From Massilia timonae CCUG 45783 (lineage in GTDB: Bacteria > Pseudomonadota > Gammaproteobacteria > Burkholderiales > Burkholderiaceae_D), in NCBI RefSeq assembly GCF_000315425.1, contig NZ_JH992922.1, forward strand, positions 195,754-259,753: a DNA stretch of 64,000 nucleotides. Reading direction: 5' to 3'. How positions within the stretch are numbered: the stretch's first letter is position 1; every line of letters starts with the position of its first letter. Positions 25,322-28,700 of this stretch are shown here, in pieces. Under the pieces are notes generated by a model. The model was not told the DNA's origin. It searched no databases and saw only the letters and a program-made list of their open reading frames with translations. The position numbers were made by a program, and so were the translations under genes.

Positions 25322-25954
25322 ATGGCTTCGGTACTCCCAAGAATCATGCGCACGACCGCAGCACTGCTGGTGTGCGCCGTCGCGCTTGCCGCCCCCGCCG
25401 GCGCCGCGGTCCTGACGACCTCGCTGTCGAGCGCCGCGGTCGCGGTGGGGCAGCAATTCTCCCTCGACGTCATGGTCGGCGACCTGGGGCCGGCCCAGGC
25501 CCTGGCCGCATTCGACCTCGACCTGGTATTCGATCCGGCGCTGGTTGCGCCGGTGAGTGCCGAGTTCGGCCACCACCTGGGCGAGGTCGATGCCGACCAG
25601 CTGACCCACGCACTCTTCGGCGCAGGCCGGGCGGACTTCGCGGCGGTATCGCTGCTGGATGACGCGGCCCTGATCGGCTTGCAGCCCGGGGTGTTCCCGC
25701 TTGCGCGACTGGTGTTTACGGCGCTCGCGCCTGGCGCCGTGTCGATCGACTTCGACCTGCTGACGGCGCCGGGCCTGCTGCTCAGCGACGGATTCGGCGA
25801 GGCCATCGCCGTCAGCGCCGTCCACGGCGCCGTCGTCGACATCGGCACGGCCAACTCTGTCCCGGAGCCGTCCACGCTGGCCTTGCTCATGCTGGGCGCC
25901 ATCCTGGCCCCCGGCCGCCGTCCATCGAGCCGCGGCCGACGCGCCGCCCTGTGA
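25322..25954 (+). CDS. cohesin-like PEP-CTERM surface protein
   Basis: A 210-residue protein. It has a signal peptide (residues 1-28, ALLVCAVALAAPAGA), a beta-rich domain (30-175) with the cohesin-type pattern FDLDLVFDPALV at 64-75 and an even strand rhythm, then a C-terminal sorting signal: SVPEPSTLAL at 179-188, hydrophobic LLMLGAILA, and a basic tail RRPSSRGRR. PEP-CTERM proteins are processed by exosortase and kept at the outer surface. AAGGA precedes the ATG. The downstream gene pair includes a dockerin-like protein, a possible binding partner. The cohesin call is by pattern only. Confidence 0.75.
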   Translation: MASVLPRIMRTTAALLVCAVALAAPAGAAVLTTSLSSAAVAVGQQFSLDVMVGDLGPAQALAAFDLDLVFDPALVAPVSAEFGHHLGEVDADQLTHALFGAGRADFAAVSLLDDAALIGLQPGVFPLARLVFTALAPGAVSIDFDLLTAPGLLLSDGFGEAIAVSAVHGAVVDIGTANSVPEPSTLALLMLGAILAPGRRPSSRGRRAAL

Positions 25955-25957
25955 CGC

Positions 25958-26239
25958 GTGGCGCACCGGCTCGCCGCGGCCGCGCCCTTGCTGCTTCTGG
26001 TGGGCGTGCTGTACGCCCGCTGTTCCGGTAACGACAAGGCGCCCTTCGTGGTCATCGGGGTGCTGGCGCTGACTGCCGTCCTGGCCTTGGCGCTGCTGCT
26101 GCGCGCCCTCATGGAAGGAAGCCTGCACGCCTGGCGCAGCGCCGCGCTGGCGGCGCTGCCGCTGCTGTATGCGGCGGTCGCCATCGCGCTGGCGCGGCAG
26201 GGGTGGGTGGACCTGATGTCGTTTCTTGGTTTTCGATGA
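25958..26239 (+). CDS. small membrane protein between cohesin-like and dockerin-like genes
   Basis: 93 residues from a GTG start three bases behind the preceding stop. Three hydrophobic segments (about 4-20, 31-49, 61-80) make up most of it, with a conserved-looking SGNDKAPFVVIG loop. Tight spacing to both neighbours supports cotranscription. No family recognised. Confidence 0.6.
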   Translation: MAHRLAAAAPLLLLVGVLYARCSGNDKAPFVVIGVLALTAVLALALLLRALMEGSLHAWRSAALAALPLLYAAVAIALARQGWVDLMSFLGFR

Positions 26240-26258
26240 ACCTCGCTCGGGAGATGGA

Positions 26259-28700
26259 ATGCAATCTGCAAAACTGAAGCTGGCGGGCCTGGCGGTCCTG
26301 CTGGTCGGCATCGTCGCCATTCCGGCGGCGATCGCCTTCAAGCCGACCCAGGAGTTCGGCCATGTCGGCATCGTCAGGGACGCGCTGACCCGGATCAGCG
26401 TCCCGGCGCCCGGTGGCAACACCTACCGGTTTTCCGAACGCGCCATCCTGGAAGTACGCGACAGCACGGCCGGCGTCGACGAGATCGTCTCCTCGCGCGG
26501 CGAGCTGTCGGTGCCCACCGCCCACTGCGACGACGAACTGCTGCCGGAATGTTCGCAGCGCATCATCGCGATCAAGAATGCGACGATCGGCCTGCTCGCC
26601 GCGCCGGAGCCGGATGGCGAAGGCGCGCGCCGCCAGGTCGGCCGGGCGCTGCACACGCTGCAGGATTTTTTCTCGCATAGCAACTGGATCAATATTTCCG
26701 GCGGCCAGCCGGGCCTGGGCACCACGGTGATCCCACGCCTGGCCCCCAGCCAGGACACCTGCGAGCGCGGCCTGTCGTCGATCGGCTCCGGCACCCTGGC
26801 CGCCTTTGGCCTGAGTTTCCCGACGACCGGCTATTTCAATCCCTTCCTGGCGCCGCCCGAAGGCAAGTGCAACCATGGACTATTGCTCGACCCCGGCATC
26901 CACAAGGATGCGCCGGGCCGCGCCGGCCACGCGCCCGCGCGCGCCGCCGCGGTGGACGCGACCGAGAGCCTGATCCGCCAGATCCTTGCGGCGCCCGGCG
27001 TCGCGGGCAACGACAAGGCGATCCGCGCCTTCCTCGACGTGCGCGGCGCGGTCGGCTTCGTGGTCGACGATACCGGCAGCATGGGCGGCGTGATCGCCGG
27101 GGTCAAGTCGTCCATCGCCCGGATCGTCGAGACGGTGCGCACCAGCCCCAACCAGCCCGACCGCTACCTGCTGGTCAATTTCGGCGATCCCGAGGTCGGC
27201 GCCGCCTTCGTCACGGCCGACGCCGCGGCGCTGCTGGCGCGCGCCAATGCCCTGTCCGCCGCCGGCGGCGGCGACTGTCCGGAACTGTCCATGGCCGGCA
27301 CGCTGCGCGCGGTCAACGCCGCGCCGAACGGCTCCCAGCTGTATGTCTTCACCGATGCCTCGGCCAAGGACGCCGCGCTGTCCGGCAACGTCGTCACCCA
27401 GGCCAACGCCAAGGACATCACCGTCACTTTCTTTACCTTCGGCTCGTGTTCGCCGATCGATCCGGCCTATTACACCATTGCGGCCGAGACCGGCGGCCAG
27501 TTGTACGCGCTGCAGCGCACGGCCGAAGAAACCGAGAAAGTCTTCGGCCTGGTGATGCCCTACGTTAGCGCCAGCCCAAAATCCCTGCTGGCCGCCAAGG
27601 GCATGGTCGGCGGTGCGCGCAACCTGCAGTTCCCGGTCGACCGCACGCTGCGCAGCCTTCAGGTATCGGTCGCGGTCGACGCCAGTGCGAGCGCGCGCCT
27701 GTTCGATCCGGCCGGCCGCGAGGTGGTCGGCGGCACGGCGGGCGTGACGATCACCACCCTGACGGGTGGCAAGCTGATCGCCCTGACGGCGCCCGCCGCC
27801 GGCAACTGGCGGCTGGCGCTGGCCGGCGTCGGCAACTACGACGTCTCGGTGTCGGGCGACAGCCCCCTGGAACTGAACCGGTTCGAGTTCGTCGAAACGC
27901 GCGGACGCGAAGGCCACGAAGGCCTGTACCCGATCAAGAGCCAGCCGCTCGCACGCGCCACCCAGCAGGCGCGCGCGACGGTGCTCGGCGCATTCAATAC
28001 CGCGCAATTCGCGCTGGTGAACGAGGCCGGCGACACCATCGCCCAGCTGCCCGCCACGCGCCGCGCCGGAGAGACCATGCCCGACGAATTCCTGGCGGAC
28101 TTCGTGCTGCCCACGCAGCCGTTCCGCGTCATGGTGAGCGGCCGCCTGGCCACGGGAGACGCGTTCCAGCGCATCCATCCGCCGGTGTTCCTGGGCCGGA
28201 CCGTCAAGGTCGAGACGCTGGGCGGCGGCTTCGGCGCCTTCAGCCCGGGACAAAGCTACGCGGTGCGCTTCCGCGTGACGAATCTGGGCGCCCAGGACAC
28301 CTTCGCCGTGAACGCCACCGACGAACGCGGATTCGTCCAGGACTATCCCCGCAGCCTCGTGCTGGGACCGAACGGGTCCGCCTTCGTCGACGTGCGGATC
28401 GCCATCCCCGCCGCCACGCCGGTGGGCACGACCAATGCCGTCTCGCTGGCGGTCACGGGAGCGTCGTCGGCCAATGGCACGGTGTTCACGCAGGTCGTGC
28501 GCGCCGCGACACTGGCGGGCGATGTCGATGGCGACGGCGACGTCGACCGTGACGATGCCCAGCTGGTGTTCGTGGCGCGCAACCAGTCCGCTTCCGGCGA
28601 CGCCGACCCGCGCGACATGGACCGCGACGGCCGCGTGACCGTGCTGGATGCACGCAAGGTCAGCCTGGCCTGCACCCGTCCATCGTGCGCACGGCAATAG
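26259..28700 (+). CDS. exported Het-C-like/VWA protein with C-terminal dockerin
   Basis: 813 residues from the ATG at 26259, which has GGGAGA just upstream. A signal peptide spans 5-26. Residues about 30-215 resemble the Het-C-like N terminus found in VWA7-type proteins (EFGHVGIVRDAL, FSERAILEVRD, LQDFFSHSNWI). A von Willebrand A domain follows, with the metal-site motif DDTGSMGG at 270-277. The middle is beta-rich. The C terminus has two calcium-loop repeats, DVDGDGDVDRDD at 755-766 and DMDRDGRVTVLD at 786-797, the layout of a type I dockerin. The likely location is secreted or surface-bound. It lies in the same transcriptional unit as the cohesin-like gene. Confidence 0.82.
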   Translation: MQSAKLKLAGLAVLLVGIVAIPAAIAFKPTQEFGHVGIVRDALTRISVPAPGGNTYRFSERAILEVRDSTAGVDEIVSSRGELSVPTAHCDDELLPECSQRIIAIKNATIGLLAAPEPDGEGARRQVGRALHTLQDFFSHSNWINISGGQPGLGTTVIPRLAPSQDTCERGLSSIGSGTLAAFGLSFPTTGYFNPFLAPPEGKCNHGLLLDPGIHKDAPGRAGHAPARAAAVDATESLIRQILAAPGVAGNDKAIRAFLDVRGAVGFVVDDTGSMGGVIAGVKSSIARIVETVRTSPNQPDRYLLVNFGDPEVGAAFVTADAAALLARANALSAAGGGDCPELSMAGTLRAVNAAPNGSQLYVFTDASAKDAALSGNVVTQANAKDITVTFFTFGSCSPIDPAYYTIAAETGGQLYALQRTAEETEKVFGLVMPYVSASPKSLLAAKGMVGGARNLQFPVDRTLRSLQVSVAVDASASARLFDPAGREVVGGTAGVTITTLTGGKLIALTAPAAGNWRLALAGVGNYDVSVSGDSPLELNRFEFVETRGREGHEGLYPIKSQPLARATQQARATVLGAFNTAQFALVNEAGDTIAQLPATRRAGETMPDEFLADFVLPTQPFRVMVSGRLATGDAFQRIHPPVFLGRTVKVETLGGGFGAFSPGQSYAVRFRVTNLGAQDTFAVNATDERGFVQDYPRSLVLGPNGSAFVDVRIAIPAATPVGTTNAVSLAVTGASSANGTVFTQVVRAATLAGDVDGDGDVDRDDAQLVFVARNQSASGDADPRDMDRDGRVTVLDARKVSLACTRPSCARQ

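What the first reader, a model, noticed from the sequence alone, without database searches (positions are those of the whole stretch)
25322..28700. Candidate cohesin-dockerin pair on a PEP-CTERM surface anchor
A PEP-CTERM-tailed protein with a cohesin-like beta domain (FDLDLVFDPALV) is encoded in one unit with a large exported protein ending in two dockerin-type calcium loops (DVDGDGDVDRDD and DMDRDGRVTVLD) plus Het-C-like and VWA modules. In cellulosomes cohesin binds dockerin; here exosortase anchoring could replace sortase-type anchoring. The Het-C/VWA cargo suggests adhesion or contact-dependent function rather than cellulose breakdown. The module calls are by eye, and the pairing is inference.
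Basis: partly seen in the sequence, partly recalled or inferred. Interest (0 to 1): 0.72.

Follow-up and report, generated by a model that had tools for sequence, protein, structure and literature searches.

The report
Bacterial plug-and-socket surface anchor
This stretch encodes a small protein with a sorting tail and a predicted cohesin ("socket") fold beside a large protein, predicted to be exported, that ends in a dockerin ("plug") motif; because related bacteria keep the same kind of socket gene next to plug-ended proteins of quite different sorts, the pair likely works as a plug and socket that would hold exported proteins on the cell surface or its slime.

The parts
25322..25954 (+). 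PEP-CTERM protein with one cohesin-fold domain (210 aa): the proposed socket and anchor
25322..25405 (+). predicted signal peptide, about residues 1-28
   Evidence: sequence by eye; helix 5-21 in the model
25403..25852 (+). cohesin-fold domain, about residues 28-177
   Evidence: AlphaFold model and PDB comparison
25859..25951 (+). PEP-CTERM sorting tail, residues 180-210
   Evidence: PF07589 and TIGR02595 over cut-off
25958..26239 (+). small hydrophobic ORF (93 aa, GTG start); no family over cut-off; role unknown
26259..28700 (+). VWA7-family protein with C-terminal dockerin (813 aa): the proposed plug-bearing cargo
26259..26336 (+). predicted signal peptide, about residues 1-26
   Evidence: sequence by eye; helix 2-19 in the model
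26436..26993 (+). VWA7_N (Het-C-like) domain, residues 60-245
   Evidence: PF25107 65.7 bits, cut-off 27.5; invariant His/Asp set in 67 of 67 aligned sequences
27048..27512 (+). von Willebrand A domain, residues 264-418
27603..27863 (+). Hemicentin galactose-binding-like domain, residues 449-535
   Evidence: PF23560 36.2 bits
28230..28472 (+). Ig_VWA7 domain, residues 658-738
   Evidence: PF23619 43.7 bits
28509..28697 (+). dockerin, residues 751-813, class A, with C...C tail (28671-28673, 28686-28688)
   Evidence: PF00404 18.6-21.6 bits; helices 764-772 and 795-803 in the model; alignment
28521..28556 (+). dockerin calcium-type loop 1 DVDGDGDVDRDD
   Evidence: sequence
28614..28649 (+). dockerin calcium-type loop 2 DMDRDGRVTVLD
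   Evidence: sequence

Best explanation
The two genes likely encode a one-to-one plug and socket: a small PEP-CTERM protein with a predicted cohesin fold would bind the dockerin at the end of the neighbouring VWA7-family protein and so would hold that protein on the cell surface or its exopolysaccharide. Inferred path: both proteins leave the cytoplasm by Sec (signal peptides predicted). The PEP-CTERM tail is held in the inner membrane, cut by one of the two exosortases of this genome, and the mature cohesin is carried out and fixed to the outer membrane or the exopolysaccharide. The dockerin then docks in the presence of calcium. In related bacteria the same kind of socket is used with other exported cargo, and the cohesin and dockerin change class together. 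Shown here: gene adjacency, fold prediction, motif content, cargo variety and class concordance. Not shown: binding, calcium dependence, exosortase processing, the route across the outer membrane, and the final location.
For: Cohesin fold. Only pair in the genome by Pfam. Adjacency: 10 of 11 short PEP-cohesins in 61 relatives against 0 of 12 other cohesin matches (types assigned). Profile search of 399 order genomes: 9 of 14 full-length matches beside a dockerin, 2 at contig ends, 3 without; without the 4 that were in the profile, 5 of 10. Eight shared contig lengths between the two homologue lists, mean 0.27 and at most 3 at offset lengths. Two classes, 7 of 8 loci with held-out cohesin concordant; distance correlation r=0.83 over 25 pairs and r=0.41 (p=0.003) over 12 diverse pairs. 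VWA7 cargo occurs with class A (window) and class B (G448), each beside a cohesin of its own class. Nine cargo kinds. Both gene orders occur. Exosortase in 17 of 18 pair genomes; outside the genus 6 of 7 against 6 of 21 controls, p=0.023.
Against: No binding data. Window cohesin and dockerin are each below Pfam's curated cut-off. PEP-cohesins without an adjacent dockerin: G289:C34, G065, G319, G041 and a weaker one, G289:C29. Of 7 paired cohesins scanned, PF00963 lists 4 at E<=1 (2 at or over the cut-off) and misses G068:C17, G050 and G068:C26; those three rest on profiles made here. G068:C17 has no PF07589 hit, G050 is below that cut-off (18.8 of 20.7), and G009's tail reads DEP and is not listed. 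Of 10 paired cargo proteins scanned at E<=0.001, Dockerin_1 is listed for 6 (5 over the cut-off) and not for G051, G345, G068:C17, G068:C26 (weaker genome-search hits exist for G051, G345 and G068:C26). Most dockerin hits in the order were not shown to have such a cohesin: of 14 loci fetched, 3 do. G228 has a pair of ambiguous class and no exosortase at E<=1e-5. The G448 cohesin frame is broken before its PEP tail. The distance correlation is not corrected for phylogeny. Where PEP-CTERM proteins end up is open in the literature (passages of PMC12188702).
Confidence: 0.72

Rival explanations
1. The two proteins do bind, but the cohesin protein is a transit adaptor: it would hold the cargo at the inner membrane or in the periplasm until exosortase cuts the tail and both are released or handed to a secretion system, so the result is timed release and not lasting display.
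For: [quoted passage not shown] PepA is described as probably secreted by type II secretion and becoming part of extracellular substances (PMC9850573 passages); secretin-sized ORFs in this order carry cohesins too.
Against: Nothing here distinguishes release from display. A few relatives of the cargo end in other anchor-like tails instead of a dockerin, all below family cut-offs, which fits attachment slightly better.
Confidence: 0.15
2. No pairing: the dockerin-like loops are a calcium-stabilised end cap, and the cohesin-like protein is an unrelated surface beta-sandwich; the genes are neighbours because both belong to one surface regulon.
For: Single-sequence scores are sub-threshold; orphan PEP-cohesins and unpaired dockerin hits exist.
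Against: Adjacency of 10 of 11 with changing cargo and both gene orders, and class concordance, are hard to explain without a contact between the two modules.
Confidence: 0.1
3. A cellulosome-like polysaccharide-degrading complex.
For: Cohesin and dockerin modules only.
Against: One PF00963 match at E<=10 in the genome, one strong dockerin match, no carbohydrate-binding module or cellulase domain listed in either protein; cargo of relatives includes peptidases, lipase and phosphoesterases.
Confidence: 0.02

Closest known systems
Single-cohesin anchoring scaffoldins of Gram-positive cellulosomes (e.g. ScaE of Ruminococcus flavefaciens)
   Same: A cohesin protein fastened to the envelope by a C-terminal sorting signal holds dockerin-bearing proteins; ScaE is sortase-attached and anchors ScaB and CttA (PMC4081043 passages). 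The predicted cohesin fold matches solved cellulosomal cohesins.
   Different: Sorting tail is PEP-CTERM with exosortase, not a sortase signal; partner gene is adjacent; one plug for one socket; no cellulose-degrading cargo seen; bacteria are Gram-negative.
PEP-CTERM/exosortase system (e.g. PepA of floc formers)
   Same: Signal peptide, PEP motif, hydrophobic stretch and basic tail; exosortases in the genome.
   Different: [quoted passage not shown] here the mature domain is a cohesin with a neighbouring dockerin protein.
Non-cellulosomal cohesin-dockerin proteins of methanotrophic archaea and their bacterial partners
   Same: Cohesin and dockerin modules proposed as adhesion devices, in one case adjacent (PMC5244752 and PMC10553843 passages).
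   Different: The passages I read do not put the cohesin on a PEP-CTERM tail or describe cargo exchange with class matching.
VWA7 family
   Same: Full domain set VWA7_N, VWA_4, Hemicentin GBD, Ig_VWA7 over cut-offs.
   Different: Adds a dockerin; 37 of 120 listed homologues end in two such loops by a simple pattern.

Membership tests
Cohesin (PF00963) | cohesin beta-sandwich fold | tested here: met
   [not shown]
Cohesin (PF00963) | sequence relation to cohesins | tested here: met
   Profile A4 of 30 sequences hits solved cohesins at 7.7e-10 (8 rows were Massilia proteins found with PF00963); 7 of 9 members of A1 match PF00963 at E<=0.01
Cohesin (PF00963) | single-sequence score over Pfam's curated cut-off | tested here: inconclusive
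   17.7 of 24.1 bits; several homologues carry a precomputed PF00963 call
Cohesin (PF00963) | binds a dockerin | not testable with these tools
   no binding assay or complex prediction available
Dockerin type I (PF00404) | two D-x-[DN]-x-D-G-x-[VI]-x-x-x-D loops, each followed by a helix | tested here: met
   Both loops present; helices 764-772 and 795-803 in the model
Dockerin type I (PF00404) | score over Pfam's curated cut-off | tested here: inconclusive
   18.6 bits, 21.6 bits, cut-off 22.9; the 8 Massilia neighbours of PEP-cohesins score 41-50 bits
Dockerin type I (PF00404) | binds a cohesin | not testable with these tools
   no binding assay or complex prediction available
PEP-CTERM proteins | PEP motif, hydrophobic stretch, basic tail, signal peptide | tested here: met
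   PF07589 and TIGR02595 over cut-off; signal peptide by eye
PEP-CTERM proteins | exosortase in the same genome | tested here: met
   two PF09721 genes, 250 and 237 bits; 24 PEP-CTERM matches at E<=0.01
PEP-CTERM proteins | tail cut by exosortase | not testable with these tools
   needs an experiment
VWA7 family | VWA7_N, VWA, Hemicentin GBD and Ig_VWA7 domains in order | tested here: met
   all four over cut-off
Cellulosome | multi-cohesin scaffoldin with carbohydrate-binding module and dockerin-bearing cellulases | tested here: not met
   one PF00963 match at E<=10 in the genome; no such domains listed in the two proteins

The most novel reading that the evidence does not exclude
PEP-CTERM cohesins are a Gram-negative socket system: each exosortase-anchored single-cohesin protein displays one exported enzyme or adhesin through a class-matched dockerin, cargo being exchanged freely between sockets. 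It would give part of the PEP-CTERM protein world, mostly without known function, a molecular job: holding soluble exported proteins on the surface or slime of Betaproteobacteria.
Probability: 0.6. Interest if true: 0.82.

Novelty: new variant of a known kind. Interest (0 to 1): 0.72.

Why it matters
Cohesin-dockerin pairs are known chiefly from cellulosomes (general knowledge), and the function of such modules outside them has been called unknown (PMC5244752 passage). What PEP-CTERM proteins bind is likewise mostly open (PMC12188702 and PMC9850573 passages). A recurrent, cargo-swapping, class-matched pair links the two questions and makes both testable with small soluble domains. If it binds as predicted, it would also be a compact, natural display system for Gram-negative surfaces with at least two candidate specificities.

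Tried and rejected
Pfam alone is too weak for this locus: both key domains are sub-threshold, and PF00963 at E<=0.1 or 0.01 did not list the cohesins of G050, G035, G345, G228, G068:C17 and G068:C26 that profiles made here found beside dockerins. VWA7_N in 399 order genomes hit only the window genome at E<=1e-5, and the VWA7 protein hit 2 of 62 genus genomes, so co-occurrence could not be tested widely on the VWA7 cargo. I changed the test to cohesin against any dockerin.

A genome-contig scan with one sequence gave 7 short or distant matches and was not used. Sequence search of the PDB with the single proteins gave nothing useful; the VWA7 alignment gave no match at E<=0.01. Fold search of the 813-aa model was filled by the VWA region, so the folds of VWA7_N and of the dockerin alone were not compared.

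Direct fusion of a PEP-CTERM tail to VWA7 cargo, which would be a strong argument, was looked for in 120 homologues. P0069 ends in an SEP + hydrophobic + RRR tail scoring 11.7 bits (cut-off 16), P0062 in a MYXO-CTERM-like tail of 16.7 bits (cut-off 20): suggestive, below threshold.

A Fisher test of genome co-occurrence left out the G041 orphan and is not used. Cellulosome and chance neighbours were considered and rejected. A promoter and terminator scan was uninformative: no promoter-like site, one terminator-like site against 1.6 expected.
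Full report
Observation. The window lies in a 6.1 Mb genome (G000:C1:195754-259753). Its genus includes G448, whose 5,351,291-base contig has the same length as the longest contig of P0121, named Massilia sp. Dwa41.01b; the closest named cohesin homologue is from Massilia sp. UYP11 (88%). So the genus is very likely Massilia in the broad sense. The PEP-CTERM ORF and the large ORF are at the stated places. PEP-CTERM is over cut-off in Pfam and NCBIfam. Cohesin (17.7 of 24.1 bits) and Dockerin_1 (18.6 of 22.9 bits) are sub-threshold. 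The large protein is a VWA7-family protein: VWA7_N, VWA_4, Hemicentin GBD, Ig_VWA7; the Het-C hit is a weak match inside VWA7_N. A 93-aa hydrophobic ORF lies between them.

Genome-wide rarity. In G000 PF00963 has one match at E<=10, this gene, and PF00404 has one at E<=0.01, the neighbouring gene, with a second at 0.207.

Adjacency in 61 relatives. PF00963 at E<=0.1 gave 22 matches in 16 genomes. By ORF length and sequence 10 are short PEP-CTERM-type proteins (G004, G009, G012, G018, G025, G026, G027, G029, G051, G041), 9 are in 750-955 aa secretin-sized ORFs and 3 lie in ORFs over 2,000 aa. Adding the window, which one search's first look missed but one search found, makes 11 short ones. PF00404 at E<=0.01 gave 14 matches in 13 genomes. 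Ten of the 11 short PEP-cohesins have a dockerin gene next to them on the same strand (in the window the 93-aa ORF lies between); G041 does not. None of the other 12 cohesin matches has one. A rough uniform-placement estimate gives under 0.0015 per genome for a dockerin within 4 kb on the same strand. Of the four remaining dockerins, two (G050, G035) have a cohesin nearby by profiles built here (in G035 an ORF lies between); G028 (a 20-position match) and G029:C5 (in an 11,426-aa ORF) show none within the 1.5 kb flanks held.

Adjacency in 399 order genomes. With A4 (capped list, and only 7 candidates scored in many genomes), 14 matches at E<=1e-15 cover nearly the full profile, in 12 genomes. 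Nine have a dockerin gene next to them (G000, G012, G051, G375, G345, G068:C17, G228, G091, G050), two (G068:C31, C35) run into contig ends that share 100 bases with a contig carrying a class A dockerin, and three do not (G289:C34, G065, G319), all of one family (f29) with ORFs of thousands of residues that hold both modules. Four of the nine (G000, G012, G051, G375) were in A4, so the independent score is 5 of 10. A weaker PEP-cohesin, G289:C29, also has no dockerin by these profiles. From the dockerin side: 45 of 399 genomes have a hit at E<=0.01, and of 14 loci fetched (a chosen subset, one of them the weak second G000 hit) 3 have a cohesin neighbour (G228, G345, G068:C26).

How firm the modules are at these loci. 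Of 7 paired cohesins scanned with Pfam at E<=1, PF00963 is listed for G345 (24.1, at cut-off), G009 (43.0), G091 (20.2) and G228 (16.0), and not for G068:C17, G050 and G068:C26. PF07589 is over cut-off for G345, G228, G068:C26 and G091, below it for G050, and not listed for G068:C17 and G009, whose tails are PEP-like only by eye. Of 10 paired cargo proteins scanned at E<=0.001, Dockerin_1 is listed for 6; G051, G345, G068:C17 and G068:C26 rest on weaker genome-search hits or, for G068:C17, on the profile made here and the loops.

Metagenome homologues. Of 33 cohesin homologues and 120 listed VWA7 homologues (144 found), eight share the exact length of their longest contig (3873, 4016, 4117, 4881, 10706, 13330, 18051, 43387); shifting the lengths by 1-100 either way gives a mean of 0.27 matches, at most 3. 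I infer that these are the same contigs. The eight VWA7 partners are 66-81% identical to the window protein.

Classes and cargo. Dockerins fall into class A (window; ends like DxDGRITVLDARK...CTRPxC) and class B (VDCADLxxVKASFGKRxGQ). Cohesins fall into matching classes. For eight loci whose cohesin was not used to build the class profiles, seven are concordant (A-A: G345, G091, G068:C17, G050, G035; B-B: G448, G068:C26) and G228 is not (cohesin 56 A, 48 B; dockerin 18 A, 40 B); the dockerins of G050 and G448 were in the dockerin profiles. Across 25 pairs (7 of them the metagenome pairs) the two distance matrices correlate at r=0.83, within the genus at 0.91 (11 pairs), and at 0.41 (p=0.003, 20,000 permutations) for 12 diverse pairs. 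These tests do not correct for phylogeny; the main guard is that both classes occur in one genus and on one cargo. VWA7 carries A in the window and B in G448, and the gene starting about 20 bases after G448's VWA7 gene is a class B cohesin, frame-broken before its PEP tail. Cargo by Pfam: VWA7; M12B reprolysin-like peptidase (G018 scanned; G004, G012, G025, G026, G029 judged alike by length and ends, not scanned); PD40 propeller (G009); Ig/PKD/cadherin-like repeats (G051); calcineurin-like phosphoesterase (G375); GDSL lipase (G050); IgGFc-binding-like (G345); peptidase C25 (G228); phosphoesterase with phospholipase C C-terminal domain (G068:C26). G035 and G068:C17 gave no telling cargo domain; G091 was not scanned. 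G027's dockerin ORF is only 96 aa, so its cargo gene looks broken. Both gene orders occur.

Exosortase. G000 has two exosortase genes and 24 PEP-CTERM matches. Of 18 genomes with a pair, 17 have an exosortase; G228 has none at E<=1e-5. In the genus nearly every genome has one (11 of 11 with a pair, 25 of 26 controls), so only the other families inform: 6 of 7 with a pair, 6 of 21 without, Fisher p=0.023.

Mechanism. I commit to the plug-and-socket reading: the PEP-CTERM cohesin is the anchor, the dockerin protein the displayed cargo. Shown: modules, adjacency, cargo variety, class concordance. Inferred: binding, calcium need, Sec export, exosortase cutting, final place. In the literature PEP-CTERM proteins are linked to keeping polysaccharide on cells and to floc formation, with the route across the outer membrane and the attachment undefined (passages of PMC12188702 and PMC9850573). 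The VWA, Ig and galactose-binding-like modules of this cargo suggest adhesion; the invariant His/Asp set of VWA7_N (67 of 67) could be a metal site, so an enzymatic part is not excluded.

Known or new. Library searches: PEP-CTERM + cohesin 0 papers, PEP-CTERM + dockerin 0, all three 0, exosortase + cohesin 1 (an archaeal review, passages read), cohesin + dockerin + Massilia 0, dockerin + Burkholderiales 8, 'cohesin and dockerin' + Proteobacteria + anchor 8 (passages of one read), noncellulosomal + cohesin + dockerin 47, 20 listed. Apart from the papers named with passages, I saw only listings and abstract starts. Subscription papers and preprints are not held; the 2009 review of non-cellulosomal cohesins and dockerins (Peer et al., seen only as a reference) could not be read. 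Public annotation names the parts ('cohesin domain-containing', 'dockerin type I domain-containing'). So the parts are known; the paired use with an exosortase tail appears undescribed within these searches.

Noticed in passing
L034-L057 and others: Many 750-955 aa ORFs of Burkholderiales, secretin-like by eye, carry a C-terminal cohesin match over the cut-off; P0149 (221 aa, cohesin) is named general secretion pathway protein D by its source.
   Followed up: no
G065, G289, G319, G041, G091, G175: ORFs of 5,000-14,000 aa hold cohesin and/or dockerin matches; families f29 and f6 also have PEP-CTERM cohesins, several without an adjacent dockerin. A possible scaffold-type network.
   Followed up: partly
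window 26436-26993: VWA7_N has invariant H35, D74, H89, H132, D136, H140, C168, C204, H206 and D217 in 67 of 67 aligned homologues, which looks like a metal site; resemblance to zinc phospholipase C or P1 nuclease is recalled and untested.
   Followed up: partly
L062 10069-10662: The class B cohesin gene next to the VWA7-dockerin gene of G448 changes frame before its PEP-CTERM tail: a decayed gene or a sequencing error.
   Followed up: partly
L088, L089, L090: Three 333-367 aa proteins with an N-terminal membrane segment and a C-terminal cohesin match (G178, G306, G082), no PEP-CTERM tail by eye and no dockerin hit listed for those genomes.
   Followed up: no
window 25958-26239: 93-aa hydrophobic ORF between socket and cargo genes, no family over cut-off; conservation not tested.
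   Followed up: no
P0062, P0069, P0070 C-termini: VWA7 homologues lacking the dockerin end in other anchor-like tails (MYXO-CTERM-like, SEP-type, membrane stretch with basic end); none reaches a family cut-off.
   Followed up: partly
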